Below are positions 333 through 21,896 of a stretch of DNA of 29,278 nucleotides, in pieces. A program made the position numbers and the translations under genes. Source of the stretch: a virus; the IMG/VR virus record IMGVR_UViG_3300009091_000209, positions 1 to 29,278 of that record. The stretch is one strand, 5' to 3'. Numbering within the stretch: the first letter of the stretch is position 1; the number at the start of each line of letters is the position of its first letter. The notes below the pieces were generated by a model. The model was not told the DNA's origin, ran no database searches, and worked only from the letters and a program-made list of their open reading frames with translations.

Positions 333-2420
333 ATGAAGATCGACTTTCAACAAGGAATTATAACATATCCAATTTCTAATGGACAACAAGTTTTTCTTGC
401 AAAAATTGGTGATTATGTCTCCCTACAAACAGCAAATGGTAGAACTGATATTACTTTTGCTCATGGAACAGAAAACTACTTATTAACTGAAGCCTCTGAT
501 GTTAATAACGCCTGGGGTCCTCTTTTACCAAATACAGATTATTGGTTATATTGGAATCTTGATCTATTAACAGCTGTTAGAACTTTTGGTTTTACCACAG
601 TAGCACCAGTTTATGGACCAACTCAACCAACAGCAGTTAATGGATTACATTGGTTTGATACTGTTAATCATAAAATGTTTTTATATCAAACTGGTGGATG
701 GCGTGAAGTTGTTCGGTTATTTGCTGCTAAAGTTAATAATGCTATCTTTACTGGATTAGGTGAAGGAATAACAGGACAACCTTTTGCTGGTTCACAGGTT
801 AGATTAGTAAATTTTGGTCTTACTGCCGGTCGTATTATAGTTGATGAAACTGGTACACCAATTCGTAGAACAAATAATTTATTCTTCACTTCAGAAGATG
901 AATTTTTTATAAATGGTTCTCCTGTTAATACAATTAGATTAGAGGCTAATATAGTAAATGCAACAGCAAAAGAAAATATTGCTCGATATCAAGTTGTAAA
1001 ATATACAAGTTTTGGACATATTCATTTAGCAACATATAATGATATTCAAACTACTATGCTTGCTATGTCAATGGAAGATATCCTACTTGAACATACAGGT
1101 ACTCTATGTGTTCAAGGTGTTATTACTAATCCAGAGTGGAATTGGCAAACTGTTGGTGCTTCTTTGTGGGTAAACGGATATGGTTTATTATCTGAAACAA
1201 ATCCATTTGTTGTTGACCCTATAACACATCCAGAAGGTAAAGTTCCTGTTGCTAGAGTTCTTACTCAAACATCTATTTTCTTTGATCAAGGGTTAGGGGG
1301 GAAAGGAGATAAAGGAGATAATGCAGTAGCTACTCCATTTGCTTCTGCAACAGTATTTGGTATTACAAAATTATCAGTAGATCCTGCTGTCACAACTAAT
1401 CCAATCGCAGTTGGAATTAATGATCCAATATTAACTCCATATACTCATCCAGCAACTCATCCAGCAACGATGATTACTACAGACACTTATGGAATATTAA
1501 CTGGATTAAACGCTCAAACTCAATTACACCAATTAGCTGATAGAACATTAGATAGTTTAGTTCCAACTCCAACTCTTAATGATTATTTAAAATGGAATGG
1601 AACTAATTGGGTTAATAGTGCGATTACTTTTCCGTTTATACCAACTACTTTAGATAGTTTAAGTGATGTAATTGTTCCAACTCCAACTCTTAATGATTAT
1701 TTAAAATGGAACGGAACTAATTGGGTTAATAGTGTGTTAACTATTCCACCATCTGGAGTAACTTCAGTTGATGTGGTTGGAGGAACAACTGGATTAACAA
1801 CTTCTGGTGGTCCTGTTATTTCTTCTGGTACTATAACATTTGCTGGTACGTTAAATATTGCAAATGGTGGAACAGGACAAACAACAGCTAATGCAGCTTT
1901 TAATGCATTAGCTCCTTCTCAAGCAACTAATATTGGAAAATATTTAACAACGAATGGAACAAACACAAGTTGGGGAACAATATCTGGTGGTGGAGTAACA
2001 ATATCTGATGATACTACAACAAACTCAACATTCTATCCAACATTTATAAATGCTATTACAGGATCAATGACTATAGCAACTGTATCATCTACCAAATTAA
2101 CATATAATCCATTTTCTGGTACTATGTTTGCAACAAATTTCCATTCAACATCTGATGAAAATTTAAAAACAGATATTAATACAATAAATGATGGATTATC
2201 GGTAGTACGACATCTTACAGGAGTTGGATTTAAATGGAAAGATACAAATATTAAATCTTTTGGTGTTATTGCTCAACAAGTAGAAAAAGTTATTCCAGAA
2301 ATAGTATTAACATCAACATTAGATGGTTCAAAAAGTGTAGAATATGATGCTATTACAGCATTTTTAATTGAAGCAATTAAAGAATTAGCTGACAGATTGG
2401 AAATATTGGAGAACAAATAA
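333..2420 (+). CDS. Tail fibre 1 with C-terminal S74 chaperone
   Basis: A 695-residue tail fibre. Residues 1 to about 330 form an N-terminal module shared with the two other long fibres here (a Phe-Gln/Arg-Gln-Gly start, an AWGPL/TWGPF block, a tDYWLYWN/DYWLYFD block, a HWFDT block, then an R-LFAAK block); it probably attaches the fibre to the tail. The shaft holds a Gly-rich segment, two copies of a TPTLNDYLKWNGTNWVNS unit and a GGTGQTTANAAFNALAP linker. The last 90 or so residues are a Peptidase_S74 / intramolecular chaperone domain: Ser607 and Lys612 (SDENLK) match the Ser/Lys pair with +5 spacing known for self-cleavage, and a GVIAQQVEKVIPE motif and a C-terminal helix follow. The domain is expected to drive trimerisation and then cut itself off. 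There are no RCC1 repeats. The start has AGGA at 322-325; the stop overlaps the next ATG. Confidence 0.88.
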   Translation: MKIDFQQGIITYPISNGQQVFLAKIGDYVSLQTANGRTDITFAHGTENYLLTEASDVNNAWGPLLPNTDYWLYWNLDLLTAVRTFGFTTVAPVYGPTQPTAVNGLHWFDTVNHKMFLYQTGGWREVVRLFAAKVNNAIFTGLGEGITGQPFAGSQVRLVNFGLTAGRIIVDETGTPIRRTNNLFFTSEDEFFINGSPVNTIRLEANIVNATAKENIARYQVVKYTSFGHIHLATYNDIQTTMLAMSMEDILLEHTGTLCVQGVITNPEWNWQTVGASLWVNGYGLLSETNPFVVDPITHPEGKVPVARVLTQTSIFFDQGLGGKGDKGDNAVATPFASATVFGITKLSVDPAVTTNPIAVGINDPILTPYTHPATHPATMITTDTYGILTGLNAQTQLHQLADRTLDSLVPTPTLNDYLKWNGTNWVNSAITFPFIPTTLDSLSDVIVPTPTLNDYLKWNGTNWVNSVLTIPPSGVTSVDVVGGTTGLTTSGGPVISSGTITFAGTLNIANGGTGQTTANAAFNALAPSQATNIGKYLTTNGTNTSWGTISGGGVTISDDTTTNSTFYPTFINAITGSMTIATVSSTKLTYNPFSGTMFATNFHSTSDENLKTDINTINDGLSVVRHLTGVGFKWKDTNIKSFGVIAQQVEKVIPEIVLTSTLDGSKSVEYDAITAFLIEAIKELADRLEILENK
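1560..1734 (+). repeat. Direct repeat of 61 bp inside fibre 1
   Basis: Positions 1560-1620 and 1674-1734 differ at a single base (T/C in the Trp-Asn-Gly region). They encode the doubled VPTPTLNDYLKWNGTNWVNS unit of the shaft. A related, more diverged triplet lies in fibre 3 (about 13835-14110). The near identity suggests recent duplication. Confidence 0.85.
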
Positions 2421-4606
2421 TGGCTTTTATATCAGATCCAGATGGTGGAGATTTAATGGATGTTTATATTACTGAGTGGTGGTTAGTTGACCAATATGTT
2501 GGTAGTAAATTGTTCATGTTTGGTAGTAATCAATATGGAATGTTAGGAGATGGAACTCTTATTAATAAATCGTCTCCAATTCAAATTGGTTCACTAACTA
2601 ATTGGACACAAGTATCAGCCGGACAATATTTCACAGCAGCTATAAAGACAGATGGAACGTTATGGACTTGGGGAAATAATGTATATGGTCAACTAGGTGA
2701 TGGAACTGTAAATCAAAGATCTAGTCCAGCACAAGTTGGTTCATTAACAGATTGGGCACAAGTTGTTTGTGGATATAATACATTAGCAGTTAAAACTGAT
2801 GGAACATTGTGGAGTTGGGGACATAACGGATATGGTCAACTTGGATTAGGTGATCTTATTCACAGATCTAGTCCTTGTCAAGTTGGATCATTAACTGATT
2901 GGAAACAAGTTACAATTGGAGGATCCTGTATGTTAGCTACTAAGATGGATGGAACCTTGTGGACAAGTGGATATCCATATGTAGCACAAATAGGAGATGG
3001 TGTAATTTTATCAACTTCAAGTTATATTCAATTAGGAACATTAACAAATTGGTCAAGTATTTCAAATAGTATAAGTAATTGGTCAGCTGCTATTAAAACT
3101 GATGGAACACTTTGGACTTGGGGGAAAAATAGTGATGGTCAATTAGGCAATAATAGTAGAATAGATATCTTTTCACCAATTCAAATAGGGTCATTAACGG
3201 ATTGGGCATATATTAGTTGTGGAGAAGCTACCAGTGCAATTGCTCTTAAAACTGATAAAACACTTTGGACTTGGGGTCAAAATAATCTTGGGCAATTGGG
3301 TGATGGAACAACAACCTATAAATCTTCTCCAATTCAAATTGGTTCTTTAACTGATTGGAAACAATTATCAGGTGGGGGAGGATTTAATACTGCTATTAAG
3401 ATCGATGGAACAATATGGTCTTGGGGAAATAATTCTAATGGCCAATTAGGTGATGGAACTTTAGTTAATAAATCTTCTCCTATTCAAGTTGGATTATTGG
3501 GAGATTGGAAAAACATATTCTGTGGACAACTTCATGTAACAGCTGTTAAAACTGATGGAACATTATGGACTTGGGGGTATAATGCTCAAGGACAATTAGG
3601 AGATGGAACACGAACTCGAAAATCATCTCCAGTTCAAATTGGATTATTAACTGATTGGAAACAAACATTTTGTGGTATGTCATACACAATTGCTATCAAA
3701 AATGATGGAACTCTATGGGGTTGGGGAGACAATGGAGCTGGTCAACTAGGAGATGGAACAAGATCTCAAAAATCTTCTTCTATTCAAATCGGCTCATTGA
3801 CTGATTGGAAAGATATATCCTGTGGGCAAATTCACGTAACTGCTCTTAAAATTGATGGAACTCTTTGGGCTTGGGGATGGAATGCTACTGGACAACTTGG
3901 TGATGGAACAACAACTCCAAAATCTTCACCTATTCAAATTGGCTCTTTAACTGATTGGAAACAACCATCTAGTAGTTATAAATATACAACTGCTATCAAA
4001 AATGATGGTTCACTTTGGATATGTGGATATACCGACACAGTAGCAGGGGTATATGGTCCTCCTATTAATTGTTCTAGTCCTGTTCAAATTGGATTATTAA
4101 CAGATTGGAAACAAGTTTCTGCTGGATATGCTCATTCTGCTGCTATTAAAACTGATGGAACAATATGGGCATGGGGAGATAATTTTGCTCCAATTCTTGG
4201 AAATGGAACATACAATTATTCTTTTTCACCTATCCAAGTAGGATCATTAACTAATTGGCATCTAGTGTCTTGTGGATATTATAAAACAATGTCTATCAAA
4301 ACAGATGGAACCTTGTGGGGGTGGGGAGATAATTATCAAGGGTCTTTAGGTGATGGAACTACAAATGAAAGATCTTCACCTGTACAAATTGGATTGTTAA
4401 ATGATTGGAAATATATTAATTGTGGAAATAATCATACTATGGCTGTTAAATTAGATGGGACTATGTGGGGTTGGGGAATGAATTGGTACGGAGAAATTGG
4501 AAATGGAACAATTAGTTTATTCTCGTCTCCAGTTCAAATAAGCACATTGAATAATTGGAAACAAGTAGATGCTGGACAATATCATACAGCATCTGTCTCG
4601 TTTTAG
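2420..4606 (+). CDS. RCC1-repeat protein, two predicted seven-bladed propellers
   Basis: A 728-residue protein built almost wholly of RCC1-type repeats of about 50 residues with the pattern DGTLWTWGNN-x-x-GQLGDGT, SSPIQIGSLTDW, then a Gly-rich turn and a hydrophobic strand ending IKT. I count 14 units by hand, exactly two times seven, fitting two closed beta-propellers in tandem. Blades 4, 11 and 12 are the most divergent. About 35 residues come first, including DVYITEWWLVDQYVG, a possible docking tag. There is no signal peptide or membrane segment. The TAATG overlap with fibre 1 indicates coupled translation and a joint role; the likely job is a receptor- or glycan-binding tip, by inference. 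RCC1 is best known from a eukaryotic nucleotide exchange factor, but the fold is a general binding scaffold and no enzyme activity is implied. Confidence 0.85.
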   Translation: MAFISDPDGGDLMDVYITEWWLVDQYVGSKLFMFGSNQYGMLGDGTLINKSSPIQIGSLTNWTQVSAGQYFTAAIKTDGTLWTWGNNVYGQLGDGTVNQRSSPAQVGSLTDWAQVVCGYNTLAVKTDGTLWSWGHNGYGQLGLGDLIHRSSPCQVGSLTDWKQVTIGGSCMLATKMDGTLWTSGYPYVAQIGDGVILSTSSYIQLGTLTNWSSISNSISNWSAAIKTDGTLWTWGKNSDGQLGNNSRIDIFSPIQIGSLTDWAYISCGEATSAIALKTDKTLWTWGQNNLGQLGDGTTTYKSSPIQIGSLTDWKQLSGGGGFNTAIKIDGTIWSWGNNSNGQLGDGTLVNKSSPIQVGLLGDWKNIFCGQLHVTAVKTDGTLWTWGYNAQGQLGDGTRTRKSSPVQIGLLTDWKQTFCGMSYTIAIKNDGTLWGWGDNGAGQLGDGTRSQKSSSIQIGSLTDWKDISCGQIHVTALKIDGTLWAWGWNATGQLGDGTTTPKSSPIQIGSLTDWKQPSSSYKYTTAIKNDGSLWICGYTDTVAGVYGPPINCSSPVQIGLLTDWKQVSAGYAHSAAIKTDGTIWAWGDNFAPILGNGTYNYSFSPIQVGSLTNWHLVSCGYYKTMSIKTDGTLWGWGDNYQGSLGDGTTNERSSPVQIGLLNDWKYINCGNNHTMAVKLDGTMWGWGMNWYGEIGNGTISLFSSPVQISTLNNWKQVDAGQYHTASVSF

Positions 4607-4630
4607 TAACAAATTAAAGGAAATTAACAT

Positions 4631-5317
4631 ATGTATGTACTAATAGAAAACGAACAAATTATTCACATTGGACCAATTCATTGGAATCAAAAAATGTTCC
4701 AAAATTATATTAAAGATGATTTAGAACTGGATATATCTCTTTCAATTCAAAATACTTCTTTAGATCCAATTGTTATTAATAATACTTTAAAAATTCTTCC
4801 TGCTATACTTGAATATCCAGCAACTCACAATCCAAAAATTGAACAATTTGCTGGACCTTTTTGGAATGTTGTTGATAATTTCGCTACGGGAACATTTACA
4901 AATGTTCCAAAAGATGTTAATGTGGTTAAAGGAGAACTAAAAAATGTTGTTGCTACTAATAGATGGATAGAAGAAACAAAAGGAATAACTATTAATATTC
5001 AAGGTCAAGATGTATCAGTATCAACAAATCGTGGTGAACGAGATATATTTTTACAAGCCTTACAATTAATGACCTCTGCTGATACTAAAAATTGGAAATT
5101 TGGTGATATTTGGTTAACTTTAACTTACACAGATTTACAAACTATCGTTAATGCTATTGTTGCTCATATTCAATCTGTGTTTGATTGGGATAAAGCTAAA
5201 TGTATTGAAATTGATAACGCTAATACATTACCAGATTTAGATACCATTCAGTTAACTATTATTGATCAACTACTAGAACCAGGAAATAGAAGAATAGGAA
5301 GAAGAAATGCCATCTAA
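4631..5317 (+). CDS. DUF4376-type tail fibre-associated protein
   Basis: A 228-residue protein. Residues about 98-195 match the DUF4376 pattern as I know it from phage tail fibre loci: a basic/aromatic lead-in (NRWIEETKGITINIQG), a central Ser/Thr-Asn-Arg block followed by a helix (FLQALQLM), then W-K-hydrophobic-strand (NWKFGDIWLTL) and a helix VNAIVAHIQSVFDWDK. The N-terminal 90 residues are not recognised. In other phages this domain lies in small proteins next to fibres and is often thought of as a fibre assembly or capping factor; that role is an inference. AAAGGA at 4616-4621 precedes the ATG. Its 3' end overlaps the next gene by 11 bp, so expression is probably coupled to the RCC1 protein after it. 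Confidence 0.7.
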   Translation: MYVLIENEQIIHIGPIHWNQKMFQNYIKDDLELDISLSIQNTSLDPIVINNTLKILPAILEYPATHNPKIEQFAGPFWNVVDNFATGTFTNVPKDVNVVKGELKNVVATNRWIEETKGITINIQGQDVSVSTNRGERDIFLQALQLMTSADTKNWKFGDIWLTLTYTDLQTIVNAIVAHIQSVFDWDKAKCIEIDNANTLPDLDTIQLTIIDQLLEPGNRRIGRRNAI

Positions 5318-6464
5318 TTTTATATTTGATGAACTTGATAACCATTTAACATATGATTTTGATGATGTTTTTATTAAAAAAACATTTTTCACAGAGTATG
5401 GTCAATTATGGGGATATGGTGCTAATTTTATTGGACAATTAGGTAATGGAACAACAAATGATGAAATTTCTCCTATCCAACTTGGTTCATCAACAATACT
5501 TTGGAAAGATATTGGGTTAAGGTTTCGTTCTTCTGCTGGTATTAAATCTGATGGAACTTTGTGGACTTGGGGAGAAAACAACCAGGGACAATTAGGTGAT
5601 GGAACAACTACCAATAAATCTTCTCCTGTTCAAATTGGTTCGGCTACTAATTGGAAACAAGTTGCTTGTGGATATTACTTTATGGCAACTATTAAAAAAG
5701 ATAATACTCTTTGGACTTGGGGGAACAACAGATATGGTGGATTAGGTGATGGTACAATTGTTAAAAAATCTTCTCCTATTCAAGTAGGGAGTTTAACTGA
5801 TTGGAAACAAGTTTCGTGTGGATATTACCATATATCAGCTGTTAAAACTAATGGAACTTTGTGGACTTGTGGATATAATTCTGCTGGACAACTTGGAGAT
5901 GGAACATTAGTACATAACTCTTCTCCTATTCAAGTTGGTTCTTTAACAGATTGGAAATCAGTTGCTTGTGGATACTCATGGACATTAGCACTTAAAACTG
6001 ATGGAACTTTGTGGGGTTGGGGAACTAATTGGTGGGGACAACTTGGTAATGGTATATCTAATAATTATTATGTAAGTCCAATTCAAATTGGTTCTTTAAC
6101 AGATTGGAAACAAATATCTACTGGATATTATCATTCAGCAGCAACTAAAACAGATGGTACTTTATGGATTTGGGGGTTGGGTACTTACGCAAGACTTGGG
6201 TTAGGTGATCTCACTAGTAAATCCAGTCCAACTCAAGTTGGTGCTTTAAATAACTGGAAACAAGTTAGTTGTATATACAATAATACAGCAGCTATTAAAA
6301 CAGATGGAACACTATGGATTTGTGGAGATAATACTTGGGGATTACTTGATGATGGATCTGCAGGTAGTTATGGAGTTTCAAGTTTTATTCAAGTTGGTTC
6401 ATTAACTAATTGGAAACGAGTAGAAAGTTCGTATGTCGATATATTAGCTCTTAAATATTATTAA
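5307..6464 (+). CDS. RCC1-repeat protein, one seven-bladed propeller
   Basis: A 385-residue protein with exactly seven RCC1-type units. The first is atypical (YGQLWGYGANFIGQLGNGT); units 2-7 start with DGTLW, DNTLW or NGTLW. The N-terminal 30 residues begin MPSNF and contain DFDDVFIKKTFF; the RCC1 protein at 17217 starts the same way (MPSNF ... DLFIIKPIF), so the pair share a short tag that may dock the propeller onto a fibre tip. The AGGA at 5296-5299 lies inside the upstream gene, and the ATG overlaps it by 11 bp. The last blade has lost the usual GQLGDGT (it reads GLLDDGS). A receptor-binding role is inferred from the fibre context. Confidence 0.85.
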   Translation: MPSNFIFDELDNHLTYDFDDVFIKKTFFTEYGQLWGYGANFIGQLGNGTTNDEISPIQLGSSTILWKDIGLRFRSSAGIKSDGTLWTWGENNQGQLGDGTTTNKSSPVQIGSATNWKQVACGYYFMATIKKDNTLWTWGNNRYGGLGDGTIVKKSSPIQVGSLTDWKQVSCGYYHISAVKTNGTLWTCGYNSAGQLGDGTLVHNSSPIQVGSLTDWKSVACGYSWTLALKTDGTLWGWGTNWWGQLGNGISNNYYVSPIQIGSLTDWKQISTGYYHSAATKTDGTLWIWGLGTYARLGLGDLTSKSSPTQVGALNNWKQVSCIYNNTAAIKTDGTLWICGDNTWGLLDDGSAGSYGVSSFIQVGSLTNWKRVESSYVDILALKYY

Positions 6465-6474
6465 AGGAAAATAA

Positions 6475-7656
6475 ATGGCAACCCCTAGATATACAACACA
6501 TTTTATTACATCTGATAATTCAGATTGTGGAACTCAATTTTTAGATAAAGATTATATGATTTCTGTTTATCCAGAACTTATTCCATCTTGGAAACTACCA
6601 AGATTATGGGCATGGGGGTCAAACAACGCAGGACAACTAGGAGATGGAACAATAACTCCTAAATCATCTCCAATTCAAATAGGTTTATTATCAGATTGGA
6701 AACAAATTAGTAGTGGGCTTGGAAGTAATTCAGCAGCTGTTAAAAATGACGGAACATTATGGACTTGGGGGGATAACCCCCAAGGACCGTTGGGAGATGG
6801 AACAATAATTAAGAAATCTTCTCCTATTCAAATTGGTTCTTTAACAGATTGGGCTAATGTGTGTATAACAGCTAGTACAACAGCAGTTAAAAAAGATGGA
6901 ACTCTTTGGTCTTGGGGAAGTAATTCTTGGGGTCAACTAGGTGATGGAACAACTACTCCAAAATCTTCTCCTATTCAAGTAGGTTTATTAACTAATTGGA
7001 AACAAGCTAATGGTGGACAAAATTTTACCATGGCTATTAAAACAGATGGTACAGTATGGAGTTGTGGATATAATGGTAGTGGTCAATTAGGTGATGGAAC
7101 AAGAACTAATAGATCAAGTCCAGTTCAAATAGGATTATTAACAGATTGGAAATCTGTTAATGCTAGTTATTTTACCACATATGCTATTAAAATTGATGGA
7201 ACATTGTGGAGTTGGGGAGGTAACAGCTTCGGACAAATTGGTGATGGAACAAGAACTAATAACTCAAGTCCAGTTCAAATTGGTTCATTAACAAGTTGGA
7301 AACAAATTAGTGGTGGATATAGTCACGTAGCAGCGGTCAAAACTAATGGAACCTTATGGGCTTGGGGGGATAATACCTATGGGCAACTTGGTAATGGAGC
7401 TACTTCTAATATAAGTAGCCCAGTTCAAATAGGATCATTAACAAATTGGAAACAAGTCAGTAGTGGAAGTTATTTCAGTATGGCAATTAAGACTGATGGA
7501 ACTTTATGGGGTTGGGGGTATAATGGTAATGGTCAACTTGGTATTGGTGGAATATCTTCAAAATCAAGTCCAGTTCAAATCGGATCGTTAAATAATTGGA
7601 AATTAGTTGCTTGTGGAAACTTCACAATAGCAATTAGTGAAGGTAGTGGTTTTTAA
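6475..7656 (+). CDS. RCC1-repeat protein, one seven-bladed propeller
   Basis: A 393-residue protein with about 45 unique N-terminal residues (MATPRYTTHF ... KDYMISVYPELIPSWKLPRLW) followed by exactly seven RCC1-type units and a short GSGF tail. It is close in sequence to the propellers on either side, with many identical runs such as SSPVQIGSLTNWKQ, so it is a duplicate of the same ancestor. The start follows the previous stop by 10 bp with AGGA at 6465-6468. It is the last gene of the first fibre operon; a late promoter motif follows before fibre 2. An adhesin role is inferred, and no enzymatic residues are evident. Confidence 0.85.
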   Translation: MATPRYTTHFITSDNSDCGTQFLDKDYMISVYPELIPSWKLPRLWAWGSNNAGQLGDGTITPKSSPIQIGLLSDWKQISSGLGSNSAAVKNDGTLWTWGDNPQGPLGDGTIIKKSSPIQIGSLTDWANVCITASTTAVKKDGTLWSWGSNSWGQLGDGTTTPKSSPIQVGLLTNWKQANGGQNFTMAIKTDGTVWSCGYNGSGQLGDGTRTNRSSPVQIGLLTDWKSVNASYFTTYAIKIDGTLWSWGGNSFGQIGDGTRTNNSSPVQIGSLTSWKQISGGYSHVAAVKTNGTLWAWGDNTYGQLGNGATSNISSPVQIGSLTNWKQVSSGSYFSMAIKTDGTLWGWGYNGNGQLGIGGISSKSSPVQIGSLNNWKLVACGNFTIAISEGSGF

Positions 7657-7693
7657 AATATTAAATATTATATCAGGTTAGAAGACAACAATA

Positions 7694-7702
7694 GATAAAT
7701 AT
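7694..7702 (+). promoter_or_regulatory. Candidate T4-type late promoter for fibre 2
   Basis: GATAAATAT differs from T4 TATAAATA by its first base. It lies 27 bp upstream of the GGAG-led ATG at 7729, in the 72-bp gap after the first RCC1 cluster. The same element stands before fibre 3 at 12119. Confidence 0.5.
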
Positions 7703-7728
7703 ATTCATTGTATTATGGAGAACTTTCA

Positions 7729-10707: not shown

Positions 10708-12053
10708 AAGATGTTGGTACTATTAGAAATATAACATTTACTGACCCATTAGAAGGTATTACTCATAGTGGAGTATTAACTAATAGCACATATGCTATTA
10801 CAACAACTCTTACTGGGGATCTTCAAGCATTAGAAGCATTAACTTCAACTGGGTTTGTAATTCGTACTGGTGCTGATACATATCGTTTAGGTCAAATTGC
10901 AGGTACAGCTGGTAGAATTTCTGTTGCTAATGGTGGTGGTAATATAGATCCAGTTATAGATTTAGTAGCAACTGGTGTTACTGCTAATACTTATACAAAA
11001 GTTACTGCTGACATTTATGGTCGTATAACTTCTGCTGTTGTTCCAGGTACTCCAGGGGCCAATACATTATCTGATTATGGTTTATCAGCTGTAGCTCAAC
11101 CATTAGCAACTAATTTAACAAACTTATCAACATTTAATACTAATGGTATTATGTGTTATACCGGTTCAAACTCTTTTAATGGTCGTCAACTTGTTTCTGC
11201 TGCAGGAACAACTGTTACAAATATGAGTGTTACAAATCCTGCTGGTCAAGGTGGAGATATCACTCTTAATTTTATTGGTGATTTAGGTCCATTCTTAGCA
11301 GCTCAAACTGCTACTGGTTTTCCAGTTCGTACAGGAGCTACTGCTTGGTCACAACGTCAAATTGCTGGAACAACTAATAGAATTTCTATTACTAATCCAA
11401 CAGGTTCATTTGGTGATCCAACTATTGATATTGATGCAACATATGCAGGTCAAGCAACTATTGCTACAGTAGGTACTATTACTTCTGGTACATGGCATGG
11501 TAATCCAATTGCTCCAGTATATGGTGGTACAGGTATTTCTTCAAACGGTACAATTGACCAATTCTTAACGGTTAGTCATACTAATGCTACAGTTTGGGAA
11601 TATAAAACATTAAATGGTACATCAAATCAAGTGATTGTTGCTCAAGCTGCTGGTGTAACTACATTATCATTACCACAAAGTATTAATACAGCTGCTGATG
11701 TTGTTTTTAATAGTGTTAATGCACCAATCATTAAATCTGCTATATTAACATTAACCGATGCTGCTAATATTTCTTGGAATATGGCTCTTGGTATTAACGC
11801 AACAGTTACATTAACAGCAAGTCGCACATTAGATAATCCAACTAATTTACAATCTGGTGCTATTGTTGTATTAAAAGTTGTTCAAGATGGTGCTGGTGCT
11901 CATACATTAGCATATGGTACAGCATATAAATGGGTAGGTGGAGTAGGTGGAACTCCTGTAGTTGCTGCTGGTGTAAATGCTGTTTCTATTCTTACTTTCT
12001 TATGTGACGGTACAAACTTATATGAAATGTCAAGAGCTCTTGATGTAGCATAA
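10704..12053 (+). CDS. Tail fibre 2, C-terminal part (other frame)
   Basis: An open frame of 449 residues with no credible start: the only one near its beginning is TTG at 10704 without a Shine-Dalgarno, and the next in-frame Met is deep inside. It continues the same 47-residue shaft repeats as the upstream frame (GDLQALEALTSTGFVIRTG, GPFLAAQTATGFPVRTG). It ends in a trimeric tip domain common in phage fibres (AANISWNMALGINATVTL, LDNPTNLQSGAIVVLKVVQDGAG, AYKWVGG, LTFLCDGTNLYEM). Restoring one G at 10706/10707 (TGA to TGG) would give SGAWKDVGT and a single fibre of about 1442 residues. It is therefore the C-terminal part of the same gene, separated by a one-base loss that is either real or a sequencing error. 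Confidence 0.8.
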   Translation: MKDVGTIRNITFTDPLEGITHSGVLTNSTYAITTTLTGDLQALEALTSTGFVIRTGADTYRLGQIAGTAGRISVANGGGNIDPVIDLVATGVTANTYTKVTADIYGRITSAVVPGTPGANTLSDYGLSAVAQPLATNLTNLSTFNTNGIMCYTGSNSFNGRQLVSAAGTTVTNMSVTNPAGQGGDITLNFIGDLGPFLAAQTATGFPVRTGATAWSQRQIAGTTNRISITNPTGSFGDPTIDIDATYAGQATIATVGTITSGTWHGNPIAPVYGGTGISSNGTIDQFLTVSHTNATVWEYKTLNGTSNQVIVAQAAGVTTLSLPQSINTAADVVFNSVNAPIIKSAILTLTDAANISWNMALGINATVTLTASRTLDNPTNLQSGAIVVLKVVQDGAGAHTLAYGTAYKWVGGVGGTPVVAAGVNAVSILTFLCDGTNLYEMSRALDVA

Positions 12054-12074
12054 TCTTAAATAATAAAACCTAAC

Positions 12075-12105
12075 AAAAGGGAATAGATTGCTCTATTCCC
12101 TTTTT
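12075..12105 (+). terminator. Factor-independent terminator after fibre 2
   Basis: AAAAGGGAATAGA (12075-12087) pairs perfectly with TCTATTCCCTTTT (12092-12104) around a TTGC loop, giving a 13-bp stem that runs into a T-rich tail. It lies 22 bp after the stop of fibre 2 and before the late promoter of fibre 3. Confidence 0.9.
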
Positions 12106-12118
12106 CTTTGTCTGAATA

Positions 12119-12127
12119 GATAAATAT
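12119..12127 (+). promoter_or_regulatory. Candidate T4-type late promoter for fibre 3
   Basis: GATAAATAT, identical to the element at 7694-7702, lies directly after the terminator and 32 bp before the ATG at 12159, which has AGGA at 12146-12149. Confidence 0.5.
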
Positions 12128-12158
12128 TCTTATATATTAATTAACAGGAATAGTTCAC

Positions 12159-15100
12159 ATGCGTATCCCATTTCGTCAAGGTATAGTTTCCTACCACCAT
12201 CCACAATTTGTGCAAGTTGACTTTATGTATGTTAACCTGATTGCAAGTAACGAATCTCCTCTTATTCTCAATATAGCATCTGATACAACAGATTACTTAC
12301 ACATTGAAAAAAGTAATATTACACATGCTTGGGGTCCTATAACAGTTGGTTCAGATGTTTGGTTATATGTAGATATTGATCGTCATACTGCGCAACGAAC
12401 TTTTGGAACTACTTATTCTGAACCAACTGTTGGTGCTACAGCTCCTCTTGCTCCATCTAATAATAAACATTGGTTTGATACTACTATAAACCAAATGAAA
12501 GTATGGAATGGCACTAATTGGGCTATTAAAATTAGAATATTTGCTTGTAAATTACAAAATGGAACTATTCCAATTAGTATGAGCATATTATCTCCTGATT
12601 TTAGTGGAACACAAATTGGAAATACTAATAGTGTATTAGCTGGTTATATCTTATTTGATACTAACCAGAATCCACTAAAATCAGTAGAAGGTCAATTTAC
12701 CACATCTGAAGATGTTCTTAGAGTAAGTTCAGCATCAGCGAGTGATGTAAAAGTAGCAAGTTTAGTTGTTGAAGCAATGGCACAAGTTAACTTTCCAGCC
12801 TATACAATTGTAGAATTTACTAATTTTGGAATAGTTAAACCAGCAACAGCATTTGTAACACAATCTAAAAAACAATATGGTATAGTTCAAACGAACGCGA
12901 CTACAGGGGATATTGTAAATGTTAATGTTGACGGGTTAATCACAAATTCTACATGGGATTGGACATCTGTTGGAGTAAACACTTATCTGTATAATGATGA
13001 TAATGGTTTTATTAGTGCAACTTCTACTATTCCTGATCAACAACCAGTTGGTATTGTGGTTGATATTCATACAATAATGCTTGTAACAAAAATTATTTTA
13101 ACTAACGCTCCAGTGTTTATTGCTACTGATACCATAGCTGGTATATCAAAATTATCAGTAATTTCTGATTTTCCAAATAATCCTGTGGTTGTTGGGGACA
13201 ATGATTTAAGATTGACTAATGCTCGTCATCCGTTACCACATAGTCATCCTATTTCTGATACAACAAACTTACAATCCACCTTAGATGCTAAATTAAATTT
13301 AGCAGGTGGAATTATGACTGGAACTTTAATTTTACATAGTAATCCATCTGGGAATCTTGATGCTGCTACTAAACAATATGTAGATGCTGCTATTACTGGA
13401 TTATTTTGGCAAACTCCTATTAATGACCCTGATTTAAAAAATGATATTTTGAATACTCCTCCAGTAACTCCTGGGTTAGAAACTTATATTGTTGGTGGAA
13501 CTCCTACTGGATTGTGGATTGGATTAGCTGGACATTTTGTAAGATGGAATGGTTCTGTTTGGATAGATATACTTAACCGACCTGTTGCTATTGGTGATAG
13601 ATTTGGGGTAGGGTTGGAATTGGCTGGTGTACCATCTGGTGGATTAACTGGGCAAAAGGACAAAATTGCTCAAGTAACTGCAAATACTCCTGGAAGTATC
13701 ACATATGATTTTACTACCCCAACTAAAGGATATGCTACATTAGTTGATGCACAATTATCATCACATTTTGGACATCAATACACCTATAACGGAACTGAAT
13801 GGGTTGAATTATCTGGAGAACAAGCCTTAGATACTCTTACAGATGTCTTAATAACCTCTCCAATTGCAGGACAAGCACTAACATATTCAGGAGTTAATTG
13901 GATAAATGCTACCCCAACTACTACATTAGTTGGATTATCTGATGTATTATTATCTACACCAACTACAGGACAAGCTTTAACTTATAATGGAACTCATTGG
14001 ATTAATTCAACACCAGCAACTTCTTTATCTGGATTAAATGATGTAACATTATCCACTCCAGTTTCTGGACAATTATTATCATATAATGGGACAAAATGGA
14101 TTAATTCTCCAAATGTCAATAGTAATGTTGGATCTTTTGGAACAAATTCTCAAGTAGGAACATTTACTGTAAATGGACAAGGATTAGTAACAATAGCAAG
14201 TAATACTCCAATTTCTATTAATGCTATTGTTCCAACACAAACTGGGAATGCTGCTAAATTTTTAAAAACAGATGGAACTATTGTAAGTTGGGATGCAATA
14301 ACTACTCCACCAGTATATGGTATGTTAACTGCTGGTGGGAATGCAGGTGGTACACTCGGTGATGGAACACAAATCAATAAATCAAGTCCAATTCAAGTTG
14401 GATCTTTAACAGATTGGAGTACTACAGACGGAACGTTAGGTGGAACATATAGTGATGTTATGAGCATCAAAACAAATGGATCTTTGTGGGGGTGGGGAGC
14501 TAATCCTTATGGAGAACTTGGAAATGGAGTAGCAGGTGTTGCAATATTATCTCCTATTCAAATTGGTTCTGCAATTGATTGGAACCAACTATCAAAAGGT
14601 GGATATTATCACGTAGCAATTATCAAAACAGGGGGAACGTTATGGGCTTGTGGATATAACGGACAAGGACAACTTGGTTTAGGAGATATTAATCATAGAT
14701 CCAGTTTAACTCAAGTTGGGTTAGATACAAATTGGAGACAAGTTGAATGTGGAGTTTATACCACAATTGCGATTAAAAACGATGGAACTTTATGGAATTG
14801 GGGATTTAATTCTTATAATACACTTGGTGATGGAACAACAATAGGTAAATCCTCTCCAATTCAAATTGGTTCGTTCACAACCTGGAGTCAAATATCAGGT
14901 GGAGGGGGACATAATGCTGCCATTGACATAAACGGAAAGTTGTATATCTGGGGATGGAATCTATATGGACAACTGGGTGATGGAACACAAAATAATCAAT
15001 CAGTTCCAACTCAAGTTGGTTCATTAACAGATTGGAAACAAGTTTGTTGTACATATACACATAGTGCAGCTCTTAAAACTGATGGAACAATATGGACATG

Positions 15101-17201
15101 GGGGGATAACACTAGTGGGAAGCTTGGATTAGGGGATACTATTCCTAGATCAAGTCCTGTACAAGTTGGTTCTGCTACAACTTGGAAACAAATAGTTTGT
15201 GGATATGGTAATACTTGTGCTATACGAAATGATGGAACTTTGTGGGCTTGGGGTAGTAACGCTAATGGAGAACTTGGTGATGGGACAACAATTGATAAAT
15301 CATCACCTATCCAAATTGGTTCTTTAACTGGTTGGCAACAAGCTCAATATGGAATGTCTTTTTTGCGTGCTATAGGTCAAGTTATTGTTCCTACAGATAT
15401 ACCACATGGAGGAACAGGTCAGGGAAGTGCAATTGCTGCTTTTAATGCTTTAGCTCCTGTTCAAACAGGAAATATTGGTAAGTATTTAACAACTGATGGA
15501 GCAAATGCAAGTTGGGGAGTTATTAGCACTATTCCATCTCAAACAAATAATGCTGGTAAGTATTTAACAACTGATGGAGCAAATGCAAGTTGGGGAGTTA
15601 TTAGCACTATTCCATCTCAAACAAATAATGCTGGCAAATATTTGTCAACTAACGGAACAACAACACTCTGGTCAACAGTAGCAACAGGTGGTGGAGGAGG
15701 TACTCCTCCAACAGCTGGTACACCAAATAGAATATTAAGTACATTAGATGGATTTACTAAAAAATGGATACCATATACCGTTCCAATCACATACTATACA
15801 ATGTGGACTTGGGGATACAATCTTCGTGGTCAACTTGGTGACGGAACTATAACCAATAGATTTTCTCCTATTCAATTACTAAGTGGATCAGTAAATTGGA
15901 CAACAATATCCAACGGATATCATTTTTCCACATCTGTTAAGGCAGATGGAACTCTTTGGACATGGGGGTATAACGATTCTGGACAACTTGGACAAGGAAA
16001 TATTACTCCTAAATCAAGTCCAGTTCAAGTTGGGGCATTAACTAATTGGGCATCTACAACAGCTGGCATAGATTTTATGGCTGCTATTAAAACTGATGGA
16101 ACTTTATGGACTTGGGGTAGTAATACTAGTGGAAAATTAGGTGATGGAACAACAATTAGAAAATCATCTCCTATTCAAGTTGGAGCACTAACTAATTGGA
16201 ATTCTGTATGTCTTGGAACTAATTTTATAACAACTATTAAAAATGATGGAACTTTGTGGACTTGGGGAAATAATTCTAATGGACAACTTGGGGATGGAAC
16301 AGTTACTTCTACTTCTTCTCCAAGTCAGATTGGTACATTAACAAATTGGACACAAGCATCAAATGGTGATCGTAATGCTGCGGCTGTTAAGTCTGATGGA
16401 ACATTATGGACGTGGGGATTTAACGGTAGCGGTCAATTAGGGTTAGGAGATATAGCTAGTAGAAGTAGTCCAACTCAAGTTGGTGCGTTAACTAATTGGA
16501 AACAAATAGCATGTGGATACACTCATAATGTAGCTGTTAAAACAGACGGAACATTATGGGGTTGGGGTTGGAATAGTTTAGGACAACTTGGGTTAGGAGA
16601 TAGAACTAACAGATCTAGTCCAGTTCAAATTGGTTCGATGACTAATTGGGCTTCTGTATCTTGTGGATATCAACATACAACAGCTATTAAAACTGATGGA
16701 ACTCTTTGGTCTTGGGGAAGTAATACTTATGGTCAGATAGGTGATAGTACATCAGTTGCAAAATCTAGTCCAGTTCAAATTGGTTCAATGACTAATTGGT
16801 CAATACTTTCTGACGGTTTTTATCATACAATAGCTTTACAAAAAACAGATTCTGTTGGTGTTACTACACCAACACCAAATACAGTAGCAGGAAGAGATTC
16901 CAATGCTGATTTATATGCCAATAATTTCATATCTAATTCAGATATAATATTAAAAGAACATATAAGAGATATTGAAACACCAGAAGACCTTATTAATACA
17001 TTAATTGGACATAGATTTAGAATGATTGACTCACAACAAGAATCTTTTGGTTTAATTGCTCAAGAAGTTGAATTAATATTACCAGAACTGGTATTTCAAA
17101 ACGGAGATACTAAATCTGTTAATTATATTCCAATAATTGGTATTTTAATAGAAGCTGTTAAATCATTAAAACACAAAATTGACATATTGTCAAACAAATA
17201 A
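12159..17201 (+). CDS. Giant tail fibre 3 with two internal RCC1 propellers and S74 chaperone
   Basis: A 1680-residue fibre. Residues 1 to about 330 are the shared attachment module. An HPLPHSHP segment and a collar motif (GIMTGTLIL, ATKQYVDA) follow, then a RWNGSVW domain and three copies of a shaft unit of the type LSDVLLSTPTTGQALTYNGTHWINS. Residues about 720-1073 hold seven RCC1-type blades. A GGTGQ linker with a duplicated 26-residue unit follows, then residues about 1212-1563 hold seven more blades. The end is an S74 intramolecular chaperone with Ser1594 and Lys1599 (SDIILK, +5 spacing), GLIAQEVELILPE and a C-terminal helix. Fibres with S74 ends are normally trimers cut at the serine, so a mature fibre could display six propellers. 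Having monomeric-type propellers inside a trimeric fibre is unusual. Confidence 0.88.
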   Translation: MRIPFRQGIVSYHHPQFVQVDFMYVNLIASNESPLILNIASDTTDYLHIEKSNITHAWGPITVGSDVWLYVDIDRHTAQRTFGTTYSEPTVGATAPLAPSNNKHWFDTTINQMKVWNGTNWAIKIRIFACKLQNGTIPISMSILSPDFSGTQIGNTNSVLAGYILFDTNQNPLKSVEGQFTTSEDVLRVSSASASDVKVASLVVEAMAQVNFPAYTIVEFTNFGIVKPATAFVTQSKKQYGIVQTNATTGDIVNVNVDGLITNSTWDWTSVGVNTYLYNDDNGFISATSTIPDQQPVGIVVDIHTIMLVTKIILTNAPVFIATDTIAGISKLSVISDFPNNPVVVGDNDLRLTNARHPLPHSHPISDTTNLQSTLDAKLNLAGGIMTGTLILHSNPSGNLDAATKQYVDAAITGLFWQTPINDPDLKNDILNTPPVTPGLETYIVGGTPTGLWIGLAGHFVRWNGSVWIDILNRPVAIGDRFGVGLELAGVPSGGLTGQKDKIAQVTANTPGSITYDFTTPTKGYATLVDAQLSSHFGHQYTYNGTEWVELSGEQALDTLTDVLITSPIAGQALTYSGVNWINATPTTTLVGLSDVLLSTPTTGQALTYNGTHWINSTPATSLSGLNDVTLSTPVSGQLLSYNGTKWINSPNVNSNVGSFGTNSQVGTFTVNGQGLVTIASNTPISINAIVPTQTGNAAKFLKTDGTIVSWDAITTPPVYGMLTAGGNAGGTLGDGTQINKSSPIQVGSLTDWSTTDGTLGGTYSDVMSIKTNGSLWGWGANPYGELGNGVAGVAILSPIQIGSAIDWNQLSKGGYYHVAIIKTGGTLWACGYNGQGQLGLGDINHRSSLTQVGLDTNWRQVECGVYTTIAIKNDGTLWNWGFNSYNTLGDGTTIGKSSPIQIGSFTTWSQISGGGGHNAAIDINGKLYIWGWNLYGQLGDGTQNNQSVPTQVGSLTDWKQVCCTYTHSAALKTDGTIWTWGDNTSGKLGLGDTIPRSSPVQVGSATTWKQIVCGYGNTCAIRNDGTLWAWGSNANGELGDGTTIDKSSPIQIGSLTGWQQAQYGMSFLRAIGQVIVPTDIPHGGTGQGSAIAAFNALAPVQTGNIGKYLTTDGANASWGVISTIPSQTNNAGKYLTTDGANASWGVISTIPSQTNNAGKYLSTNGTTTLWSTVATGGGGGTPPTAGTPNRILSTLDGFTKKWIPYTVPITYYTMWTWGYNLRGQLGDGTITNRFSPIQLLSGSVNWTTISNGYHFSTSVKADGTLWTWGYNDSGQLGQGNITPKSSPVQVGALTNWASTTAGIDFMAAIKTDGTLWTWGSNTSGKLGDGTTIRKSSPIQVGALTNWNSVCLGTNFITTIKNDGTLWTWGNNSNGQLGDGTVTSTSSPSQIGTLTNWTQASNGDRNAAAVKSDGTLWTWGFNGSGQLGLGDIASRSSPTQVGALTNWKQIACGYTHNVAVKTDGTLWGWGWNSLGQLGLGDRTNRSSPVQIGSMTNWASVSCGYQHTTAIKTDGTLWSWGSNTYGQIGDSTSVAKSSPVQIGSMTNWSILSDGFYHTIALQKTDSVGVTTPTPNTVAGRDSNADLYANNFISNSDIILKEHIRDIETPEDLINTLIGHRFRMIDSQQESFGLIAQEVELILPELVFQNGDTKSVNYIPIIGILIEAVKSLKHKIDILSNK
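15477..15632 (+). repeat. Perfect 78-bp tandem duplication in fibre 3
   Basis: 15477-15554 and 15555-15632 are identical over 78 bp by eye; a third, diverged partial copy follows. Each encodes 26 residues (GKYLTTDGANASW plus GVISTIPSQTNNA) of the linker between the two propellers. Perfect identity including third codon positions means a very recent duplication or ongoing homogenisation. Confidence 0.92.
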
Positions 17202-17216
17202 ACGGAGAAGATAATC

Positions 17217-18344
17217 ATGCCTTCAAATTTTAAATTTCCAATTGATGGAATACTTTATGACATACTAGATCTATTCATCATTAAACCTATCTTTGGAACA
17301 AATTCTTCTTTATGGGCTTGTGGATTTAATAATCTAGGTAGACTTGGAGATGGAACAATTATTAATAAATCTTCTCCGATTCAAGTTGGATCATTAACAG
17401 ATTGGAATACTATTTGTGCTGGAAATAGTTCATATTCTGTCAAATCTACTGGAACTCTTTGGGCTTGGGGACCAAATGGTAATGGTGAACTTGGAAATGG
17501 AACTAGAACGGCAGTATCTAGTCCTATTCAAATTGGTTCTTTAACTAACTGGAAACAAGTTAATGGTTGTAATCTAGCAGCTCACGCTATTAAAACTGAT
17601 GGAACATTATGGGGTTGGGGATTAGGAAATAGACTTGGTGATGGAACAATTATATCTAAATCTAGTCCTATTCAAATTGGTTCTTTAACAACTTGGAAGG
17701 CTGTTGCTGGTATTGGTCCTTCACTAGTAGCTCTCAAAACAGATGGAACAATATGGAGTTGGGGAACTGATGGGTATTCTGGTACTCTTGGACAAGGTAC
17801 AACAAGTACTAATCGATCAAGTCCAACACAAATTGGACTACTAACTAATTGGAAACAAGTTTCTTGTGGATATAATTTCATGGGAGCTGTTAAAACTTAT
17901 GGAACTCTTTGGGTATGGGGAGATAATTATTATGGTCAACTTGGGTTAGGAGATAGAACTAACAGATCTAGTCCAGTTCAACTTGGGTTACAAACCAATT
18001 GGTCACAAGTATCATGTGGAAATCTTCATTTGACTGCCACTAAAACAGATGGAACATTATGGGCTTGTGGATATAATGCATATGGTCAATTAGGTGATGG
18101 AACAATAATTTCAAGATCATCTCCTGTTCAAACCGGGTTATCAACAAATTGGCGACAGGTTTCAGCTAATGGTGCTAGTACTGCTGCTGTTAAACTTGAT
18201 GGAACTTTATGGAATTGGGGAGATAATTCTCAAGGACAACTTGGTGATGGAACAATTGCTAATAAATCATCACCAATTCAAGTTGGATCGTTAACGAGTT
18301 GGAGAGCTGTAGCTGTTGGAAATTATTATATACTAGCAGTATAA
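17217..18344 (+). CDS. RCC1-repeat protein, one seven-bladed propeller
   Basis: A 375-residue protein with exactly seven RCC1-type units after a 30-residue N-terminus (MPSNFKFPIDG ... DLFIIKPIF) that resembles the protein at 5307. Blade 3 is short (GWGLGNRLGDGT) and blade 4 carries an insertion (TDGYSGTLGQGT). It starts 16 bp after fibre 3 with GGAG at 17204-17207, so it is the distal gene of the fibre 3 operon, just as the 2420 gene follows fibre 1. Blade 5 shares 45 identical bases (17937-17981) with fibre 3 (16584-16628). The inferred role is a separately made adhesin tip belonging to fibre 3. Confidence 0.85.
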   Translation: MPSNFKFPIDGILYDILDLFIIKPIFGTNSSLWACGFNNLGRLGDGTIINKSSPIQVGSLTDWNTICAGNSSYSVKSTGTLWAWGPNGNGELGNGTRTAVSSPIQIGSLTNWKQVNGCNLAAHAIKTDGTLWGWGLGNRLGDGTIISKSSPIQIGSLTTWKAVAGIGPSLVALKTDGTIWSWGTDGYSGTLGQGTTSTNRSSPTQIGLLTNWKQVSCGYNFMGAVKTYGTLWVWGDNYYGQLGLGDRTNRSSPVQLGLQTNWSQVSCGNLHLTATKTDGTLWACGYNAYGQLGDGTIISRSSPVQTGLSTNWRQVSANGASTAAVKLDGTLWNWGDNSQGQLGDGTIANKSSPIQVGSLTSWRAVAVGNYYILAV

Positions 18345-20685: not shown

Positions 20686-21462
20686 ATGAACAAACAGTTC
20701 TATTTCATTTCAGGCCTTCCACGTTCTGGAACAACCCTGTTATCAGCAATATTAAACCAAAATCCAAGATTTCAAGCAAGTATATCAGGTCCATTAGCAA
20801 GATTTGTTCGTGCTGTTATTGAACAATCATCTGCTCAAGGCGGATATCGCTATCAATGCGATGAAGCAAAACGTAAAAAAATCATTCAAGGTATGTTCGA
20901 TAATTACTATAATGATGGAACCAAAGAAGTATTCTTCGATACTAATCGTGGTTGGAATCTATTACTTCCTACTGTTAAGGAGTTATATCCAACAACAAAA
21001 GTTATTTGTTGTGTTAGAGATATTAAATGGATTTTAGATTCATTTGAACAACTCATTCGTAAAAATCCATTATCTGTCACTCCAATGTTTACATCAGATG
21101 AAAATACTAATGTGTATACAAGATGTCAAACTTTATTAAGAGAAGATAAAACATTAGGGTTTGCTTATGCTGCCCTCAAACAAGCAATTACAAGTGATGA
21201 AAAAACTATGATTATGTTGGTTGAGTATGACAAATTATGTAAAAATCCAGAACAAATGATGAAAACTATTTATAAATTTATTGGTCAAGAATATTTTGAA
21301 CATGATTTTAATAATGTTGAAACATCTTATGAAGAATTTGATAATGATGTTAATTTAAAAGGATTACACACAACTCGTAAGAAAATTTCATTTATTGAAC
21401 GACCAACTATTTTACCACCAGATATTATAGCACACGTTAAGGGGCTTGAGGTGTGGAGATGA
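20686..21462 (+). CDS. PAPS-dependent sulfotransferase
   Basis: A 258-residue protein of the Sulfotransfer superfamily. The 5'-phosphosulfate loop GLPRSGTT is at residues 10-17 near the N-terminus. The 3'-phosphate-binding element follows the strand KVICCV with Arg111 and Ser119 (CVRDIKWILDSF). A YDKLCKNPEQMMKTIYKFIG helix (the usual YEDL..P...L..I..FLG) and a C-terminal segment resembling K-x-x-x-IERPTILPPD complete the fold. It transfers sulfate from PAPS to a hydroxyl or amine; the acceptor is unknown, and a glycan is likely given the glycosyltransferase two genes on. AGGA at 20676-20679 sets the start. The stop overlaps the next ATG in ATGA, tying it to the APS kinase that makes PAPS. Confidence 0.85.
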   Translation: MNKQFYFISGLPRSGTTLLSAILNQNPRFQASISGPLARFVRAVIEQSSAQGGYRYQCDEAKRKKIIQGMFDNYYNDGTKEVFFDTNRGWNLLLPTVKELYPTTKVICCVRDIKWILDSFEQLIRKNPLSVTPMFTSDENTNVYTRCQTLLREDKTLGFAYAALKQAITSDEKTMIMLVEYDKLCKNPEQMMKTIYKFIGQEYFEHDFNNVETSYEEFDNDVNLKGLHTTRKKISFIERPTILPPDIIAHVKGLEVWR

Positions 21463-21887
21463 AAATATTAATATTTGGATTACCAGGTTCTGGAAAAACA
21501 ACTTATGCTAATGACTTGAATAAACTACTAAACTATTCAAGAATAAACGGTGATGAAGTTCGTAAAGCAGCAAATGATTGGGATTTTTCATATGAAGGTA
21601 GAATCAGACAAGCTGTAAGAATTAAAGAATTAGCAGATACAATGGAAGATGTTATTATTGATTTTGTTGCTCCTTATCAAAAAATGAGAAAGATTATTAA
21701 TCCAGATTTTACTATCTGGATGGATACTATCACAGAAAGTATATATCAAGATACTAATATAATATTTGAACAACCATATGTTGGAGAAGATTTTGGTGAT
21801 GGTTATATAAGAATAAGTAAATTTGGTGATGACATCCCAATAGTTAGTTGTCTTATAACAGACATAAAGAAATCTTTTTCGTTATAA
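21459..21887 (+). CDS. Adenylylsulfate (APS) kinase-like, phage type
   Basis: A 142-residue P-loop kinase. I take the ATG at 21459 (ATGA overlap with the sulfotransferase stop) over a GTG six bases upstream. GLPGSGKTT (7-15) is the Walker A loop. INGDEVR (29-35) and NDWDFSYEGRIRQAVRIKELAD match the APS kinase DGD-x-R / LGFS-x-x-R-x-x-x-R signature, with Asp32, Arg35, Phe43, Arg48 and Arg50 as the visible equivalents. IDFVAPYQKMR corresponds to the AFISPY-x-x-x-R strand. It phosphorylates APS to PAPS, the sulfotransferase donor. It is shorter than cellular CysC (about 200 residues) and its C-terminus after IWMDTI is divergent, as I recall from other phage versions. No ATP sulfurylase is seen, so APS would come from the host. 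Confidence 0.8.
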   Translation: MKILIFGLPGSGKTTYANDLNKLLNYSRINGDEVRKAANDWDFSYEGRIRQAVRIKELADTMEDVIIDFVAPYQKMRKIINPDFTIWMDTITESIYQDTNIIFEQPYVGEDFGDGYIRISKFGDDIPIVSCLITDIKKSFSL

Positions 21888-21896
21888 AGGATAACT

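What the first reader, a model, noticed from the sequence alone, without database searches (positions are those of the whole stretch)
2420..18344. 49 RCC1 blades in seven complete seven-bladed propellers
Counting units by the DGTLW...GQLGDGT...SSPxQxG...W pattern gives 14, 7, 7, 7+7 (two blocks in fibre 3) and 7. No block has a partial count, although the repeats are similar enough in DNA for unequal crossing-over to make any number. This implies that only closed seven-blade rings (single or double) survive selection, so these are folded functional propellers. A phage locus devoting about 7.5 kb to seven propellers is striking.
Basis: partly seen in the sequence, partly recalled or inferred. 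Interest (0 to 1): 0.85.

Follow-up and report, generated by a model that had tools for sequence, protein, structure and literature searches.

The report
Phage seven-bladed propellers with variable faces
This phage fragment encodes seven complete seven-bladed RCC1 propellers next to and inside its tail-fibre genes, and in related phages one face of these discs evolves very fast, which suggests they grip host surfaces rather than condense DNA as their annotation claims.

Summary
In detail: exactly 49 RCC1 units, as 14, 7, 7, 7+7 and 7. An AlphaFold2 model of the 14-unit protein gives two closed seven-bladed rings; one superposes on UVR8 (351 residues, 1.4 A). The rule of seven is general: in related viral contigs 260 of 274 stand-alone arrays hold a multiple of seven (up to 49 in one ORF); by 70% identity clusters, 173 of 176. 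It is not absolute: a few arrays hold 3-6 blades, some probably assembly collapse. Seven is also normal for the RCC1 fold, so it is expected.

New here: the most variable blade positions (7, 9, 10, 20, 40, 41) coincide with UVR8's dimer face. In nine pairs of related rings they change at pN/pS about 1.2, against 0.18 elsewhere, and are Tyr/Ser/Asn/Gly-rich, not basic. The first ring gene usually starts directly behind an S74-tipped fibre gene and has a conserved N-terminal tag. Rings are homogenised within a genome.

Best reading: tail-fibre-associated binding discs, working like T2-type gp38 tip adhesins. RCC1 proteins of other phages are proven virion components, but were guessed to package DNA. 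Receptor binding itself is inferred.

The parts
333..2420 (+). Fibre 1 (695 aa) with C-terminal Peptidase_S74 chaperone domain (nt about 2151-2309), directly upstream of the first propeller gene
   Evidence: Pfam PF13884 E 2e-13, many tail-fibre PHROGs
2420..4606 (+). Stand-alone RCC1 protein, 14 blades = two rings; tag of type A1 at aa 1-29 (..DLMDVYITEWWLVDQYVGS)
   Evidence: AF2 model and fold match
4631..5317 (+). DUF4376 protein (possible tail-fibre associated protein) between ring genes
   Evidence: Pfam PF14301 E 4e-9; phrog_10508 tail fiber protein
5307..6464 (+). Stand-alone RCC1 ring, 7 blades; tag of type A3 (..YDFDDVFIKKTFF)
6475..7656 (+). Stand-alone RCC1 ring, 7 blades; tag of type A2 (..LDKDYMISVYPELI)
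7708..12053 (+). Fibre 2, in two overlapping frames (7708-10707 and 10704-12053), no RCC1
   Evidence: PHROG structural/tail matches, no Pfam match
12159..17201 (+). Fibre 3 (1680 aa) with two internal RCC1 rings and a C-terminal S74 domain (nt about 16938-17093)
14319..15386 (+). First 7-blade ring inside fibre 3
15798..16850 (+). Second 7-blade ring inside fibre 3
17217..18344 (+). Stand-alone RCC1 ring, 7 blades; tag of type A3 (..YDILDLFIIKPIF)

Best explanation
The locus encodes seven RCC1-type seven-bladed beta-propellers that are virion-borne binding discs of the tail-fibre apparatus. Two sit inside a fibre that ends in an S74 chaperone domain. The others are separate proteins with short conserved N-terminal tags, the first encoded directly behind an S74 fibre. 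I propose that the tag docks each disc to a fibre or baseplate site, and that one face of the disc, made from the WGxNxxG loop and the GxxH loop of every blade (about 42 variable residues per ring), binds host surface ligands. The scaffold is kept at seven blades because that number closes the ring; the face diversifies under selection; recombination between rings homogenises the framework within a genome. Shown here: blade counts, rule of seven, predicted closed rings, face hypervariability, conserved tags, synteny, within-genome homogenisation. Known for relatives from papers: RCC1 proteins are in virions. Inferred: tag docking, location on the fibre, receptor binding.
For: Seven-fold closure: AF2 of the 14-blade protein, pLDDT 85, 56 strands; one ring matches UVR8 over 351 residues at 1.4 A, Z 55.9, and the rest of the chain forms the second ring; Foldseek TM 0.91 to UVR8. 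Counts: 260 of 274 stand-alone arrays, 173 of 176 clusters, including a tag-anchored sample not chosen by blade number. Face: the variable columns 7, 9, 10, 20, 40, 41 hold UVR8's interface residues E43, D44, D96, D107, R146, E182, R286, R338 (PMC5091643). In nine pairs of related rings face pN 0.251 against pS 0.210, other columns pN 0.038; none of 100,000 random column sets matches. Face composition 54-57% Y/S/N/G, K+R 3-6%. Synteny: S74 end to first blade 180-222 bp in 13 of the 17 records examined that have both, 198 bp in the window; a fibre gene directly upstream in S-SRM01. Virion location in relatives: GAP32 GAP_001 (PMC5259590) and W70_237-239 of phrog_4219 (PMC11370258), a family that also matches the window proteins. 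RCC1 folds in proteins named tail fibre in PollyC and Littlefix, and RCC1 within the window's own third fibre.
Against: No binding or localisation data for this phage. The virion-proven relatives are distant coliphage and Cronobacter phage proteins whose position in the particle is unknown. Cellular RCC1 proteins vary in the same columns, so a variable face is not specific to host-receptor binding. Face pN/pS is only slightly above 1, from nine pairs of which two carry almost no changes, without a formal positive-selection test. Half of the records with rings show no S74 domain (17 of 34 have one).
Confidence: 0.64

Rival explanations
1. The RCC1 proteins organise or condense phage DNA in the capsid, as the annotation and published guesses say.
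For: RCC1 of eukaryotes binds nucleosomes; the authors on phAPEC6 and W70 suggest it; RCC1 proteins are in virions. Most related rings have a mildly positive net charge (median +6).
Against: The variable face is poor in Lys/Arg (3-6%) and evolves without constraint; window rings include acidic ones (14-blade protein -9.9); two rings are built into an S74 fibre and the first ring gene usually follows a fibre gene. A DNA-packing role would not call for a fast-changing surface.
Confidence: 0.1
2. The rings are fibre structural or decoration modules (spacers, assembly platforms) or bind general environmental ligands, without a role in host choice.
For: Several copies per genome, internal position in fibre 3, tags, widely kept scaffold.
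Against: Does not explain why change is concentrated on one face at about the synonymous rate.
Confidence: 0.18
3. The rings inhibit or capture host or competitor proteins after infection (as BLIP-II inhibits beta-lactamase), for example as antidefence proteins.
For: BLIP-II has the same fold and binds a protein (rmsd about 2 A).
Against: Virion location of relatives and fusion to fibres; stand-alone rings carry tags and sit in the fibre cluster.
Confidence: 0.06

Closest known systems
RCC1-like propellers (UVR8, RCC1, RPGR, HERC2 RLDs, BLIP-II)
   Same: Same repeat, seven-bladed closed ring, rmsd 1.4-2.5 A; the variable face corresponds to UVR8's protein-binding (dimer) face
   Different: Here in viruses with up to 49 blades per ORF, short N-terminal tags, fibre context; no sign of a nucleotide-exchange or photoreceptor role
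Phage 'regulator of chromosome condensation' proteins (phrog_4219, phrog_7220, phrog_16766; GAP32 gp1, W70_237-239, phAPEC6, S-SRM01)
   Same: Same PHROG families; several copies per genome; virion proteins by mass spectrometry in GAP32 and W70; in S-SRM01 behind the long-tail-fibre gene
   Different: Published role is a guess (DNA packaging); window rings are also fused inside an S74 fibre
T2-type gp38 tip adhesin
   Same: N-terminal attachment to the fibre, hypervariable loops on a fixed scaffold, encoded next to the distal fibre gene (gene order from own knowledge)
   Different: Scaffold is a beta-propeller, not a polyglycine-II sandwich; the fibre carries an S74 chaperone; docking to the fibre is not shown
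Receptor-binding protein of Staphylococcus phage phi11 (own knowledge; paper listed, not read)
   Same: A beta-propeller used for host binding by a tailed phage
   Different: A different, five-bladed propeller (recalled, not tested here)

Membership tests
RCC1 / RCC1-like domain (PF00415, PF25390) | RCC1 repeat profile above curated cut-off | tested here: met
   PF00415 192.9-436.9 bits and PF25390 197.9-489.4 bits against cut-offs 21.7 and 150
RCC1 / RCC1-like domain (PF00415, PF25390) | Seven-bladed closed propeller | tested here: met
   AF2 model of the 14-blade protein with UVR8 over 351 residues at rmsd 1.4; prediction, not experiment; the single rings were counted but not modelled
RCC1 / RCC1-like domain (PF00415, PF25390) | Ran nucleotide exchange or chromatin binding | not testable with these tools
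   No biochemical data; this feature defines only some members
Phage RCC1 families phrog_4219 / 7220 / 16766 | Profile match | tested here: met
   E down to 1e-124
Phage RCC1 families phrog_4219 / 7220 / 16766 | Present in the virion | not testable with these tools
   Shown for W70 and GAP32 relatives in papers, not for this phage
T2-type gp38 tip adhesin | gp38 sequence family or polyglycine-II sandwich fold | tested here: not met
   Pfam and PHROG scans of the ring proteins give only RCC1 and general tail families; the predicted fold is a propeller. It may work like gp38; it is not a member
DGR-diversified receptor-binding protein | Reverse transcriptase in the genome | tested here: inconclusive
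   No RVT_1 above cut-off in 30 related records; window not searched with that family; records may be fragments

The most novel reading that the evidence does not exclude
Phage RCC1 propellers form an antibody-like display system: a rigid seven-blade disc whose one face carries about 42 freely varying, Tyr/Ser/Asn-rich residues, present in several tagged copies per virion and kept uniform in framework by recombination between rings. If so, many phage genes now annotated as DNA condensation proteins are host-binding adhesins.
Probability: 0.5. Interest if true: 0.78.

Novelty: new variant of a known kind. Interest (0 to 1): 0.6.

Why it matters
RCC1 arrays are common, unexplained multi-copy genes of aquatic and jumbo phages and are filed as DNA condensation proteins. 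The evidence here points to a host-facing role and names the exact residues to test. It also gives a natural collection of hypervariable propeller binders, and a case where ring closure holds repeat number to multiples of seven in arrays of 7 to 49 units.

Tried and rejected
Sequence memory of blade position between rings: none found in the window, and only a weak lag-7 signal in long arrays. Fixed double-ring topology: AF2 nests ring 157-511 inside ring 28-156 + 512-728 for the window protein, but lays the rings in series (20-370, 371-720) for the 14-blade protein of L138; the topology of linker-less double rings is therefore undecided and not claimed. Tags on other domains: in the tag-anchored set 231 of 232 tag-bearing ORFs have RCC1, and the exception is cut by a contig end, so I could not show that the tags are general phage docking modules. 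DGR as the source of variation: no reverse transcriptase above cut-off in 30 records. The N-terminus of fibre 3 as a probe for relatives found only one weak locus. The first ring alignment used as query was biased towards seven; I repeated with a single-blade query and tag queries. In the window's blade comparison the two rings of fibre 3 shared a label, so 42 rather than 49 blades entered the matrix; the conclusion rests on the remaining pairs. Literature searches for RCC1 with phage hypervariability found nothing relevant.

Full report
OBSERVATION. Five proteins of the window carry RCC1 units. Counted by hand on the translations and by a profile built from the blades, the numbers are 14, 7, 7, 7+7 and 7, in all 49. 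Pfam RCC1 finds 47 of them; the two missing ones are degenerate but in phase. The whole proteins match RCC1 at E 1e-57 to 1e-134.

CONTEXT. The window is a 29-kb virus record, probably from a T4-like or jumbo-type myovirus; its RecA-like protein is nearest to those of Stenotrophomonas phages CM1/RAS14 and Xanthomonas phage XacN1 (44-48% identity). The order is S74 fibre, 14-blade protein, DUF4376 protein, ring, ring, second fibre, third fibre with two internal rings and S74, ring. Synechococcus phage S-SRM01 has a similar arrangement: long-tail-fibre distal subunit, ring, hypothetical protein, ring, and a third ring further on.

ARE THEY CLOSED RINGS? AlphaFold2 on the 14-blade protein, with 23 relatives in the alignment, gives 56 strands and mean pLDDT 85; the first 26 residues (the tag) are of very low confidence. 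UVR8, a solved seven-bladed ring, superposes on model residues 157-511 (351 residues, 1.4 A, Z 55.9), and RCC1, HERC2 and BLIP-II fit a second ring made from both ends of the chain (Foldseek TM 0.91). A second 14-blade protein from another phage (L138) is predicted as two rings in series, 20-370 and 371-720. So there are two closed rings in both cases; which blades belong to which ring in linker-less arrays is not settled. The single rings were counted but not modelled.

IS SEVEN A RULE? I counted blades in complete ORFs from three samples: ring query, single-blade query and N-terminal-tag queries, the last not chosen by blade number. Stand-alone arrays: 237 of 7, 14 of 14, 4 of 21, one each of 28, 35 and 49, two of 42; 260 of 274 are multiples of seven. 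Clustered at 70% identity, 173 of 176 clusters have a multiple of seven as their usual number. The two 8-counts are six full blades plus half blades at the two ends, that is, seven. Exceptions that look like true non-sevens: S-SRM01 gp335 with 6; L035, L097, L177 and L260 with 6; L211 and L195 with 5; L199 with 4; L210 with 3. L195 has a near-identical relative with 7 (L196), differing by 303 bp with a 114-bp exact repeat at the junction; L158 (6) and L157 (7) differ by exactly one blade with a 215-bp exact repeat, so short-read collapse is possible there. Cellular RCC1 arrays retrieved with the same query peak at 7, 14 and '8'; most of the 8s have weak half blades at both ends, again seven. 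Hence seven is a property of the fold, kept strictly in phages, with occasional exceptions.

WHAT VARIES. In 890 units from related phages the conserved positions are structural, and the positions 7, 9, 10, 20, 40 and 41 are among the most variable. Aligned to UVR8, the residues reported to hold its dimer together (E43, D44, D96, D107, R146, E182, R286, R338; PMC5091643) fall in columns 9, 10, 9, 20, 7, 41, 41, 41. So the variable positions lie on one known protein-binding face. In nine pairs of related rings these six columns (12% of positions) hold 178 of 361 amino-acid changes; pN is 0.251 against pS 0.210, while other columns have pN 0.038. No random set of five columns in 100,000 reached the count of the five paper-defined ones. 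The face is 54-57% Tyr, Ser, Asn and Gly and poor in Lys/Arg, a make-up that resembles antibody loops (own knowledge) rather than a DNA-binding surface. Cellular relatives vary in the same columns, so the face may be a general binding site of the family.

TAGS, SYNTENY AND CONCERTED EVOLUTION. Stand-alone rings begin with short tags of a few kinds. Three kinds (A1, A2, A3) recur together in related phages and in this window. In the tag-anchored set the tags occur only with RCC1. The first ring gene usually lies directly behind an S74 domain: 180-222 bp from S74 end to first blade in 13 of the 17 records examined that have both, and in 13 of the 15 with an S74 within 6 kb upstream; 198 bp in the window. 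Framework identity is higher between different rings of one genome (0.647) than between same-tag rings of different genomes (0.506), which is no higher than between different-tag rings of different genomes (0.500); face positions are equally unlike in both comparisons (0.16). So tags mark position, ring frameworks are homogenised within a genome, and faces are not. In the window itself blades average 62% DNA identity, 77% at most, with no correspondence by position.

MECHANISM. The most economical reading is a binding disc docked by its tag to a fibre or baseplate, or built into a fibre, with the variable face towards the host. It resembles T2-type gp38, a tip adhesin that attaches by its N-terminus to gp37 and carries hypervariable loops (PMC12892980), but it is not a gp38. 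RCC1 proteins are experimentally in the virions of GAP32 (PMC5259590) and W70 (three proteins, phrog_4219; PMC11370258); authors guessed a role in DNA encapsulation, as did those of phAPEC6 (PMC7247149). The face evidence, the fibre fusions and the synteny argue for the outside of the particle. Receptor binding, tag docking and location are inferred, not shown.

VERDICT. Observation confirmed; interpretation right in the main with three corrections; the added value is the variable face and the fibre pairing. A new variant of a known kind.

Noticed in passing
window 7708-12053: The second fibre is split into two overlapping frames (stop of the first and TTG of the second at 10704-10707, a -1 change); it may be one gene broken by a sequencing error or a real frameshift.
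   Followed up: partly
window 15476-15635: The linker between the two rings of fibre 3 holds about three copies of a 78-bp repeat (SQTNNAGKYLTTDGANASWGVISTIP).
   Followed up: no
L069:3092-10546: A single viral ORF of 2485 aa with 49 RCC1 blades and no linkers (seven rings); L029 has 42, L127 has 35, L100 has 28.
   Followed up: partly
L157/L158 (and L159-L162), ring at about 9735: Near-identical contigs carry 7 or 6 blades, differing by exactly one 150-bp blade with a 215-bp perfect junction repeat: either live variation or assembly collapse.
   Followed up: partly
L048: Seven stand-alone ring genes in one contig, with Pro-rich N-terminal segments of a different kind from the A-type tags.
   Followed up: no
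window 20686-22442: Downstream of the rings the translations look like a sulfotransferase-like, a kinase-like and a methyltransferase-like gene (judged by eye); S-SRM01 also has a sulfotransferase and sugar genes near its rings.
   Followed up: no
PHROG annotation of phrog_4219, 7220, 16766: Phage RCC1 families are classed under DNA, RNA and nucleotide metabolism; this is probably misleading.
   Followed up: yes
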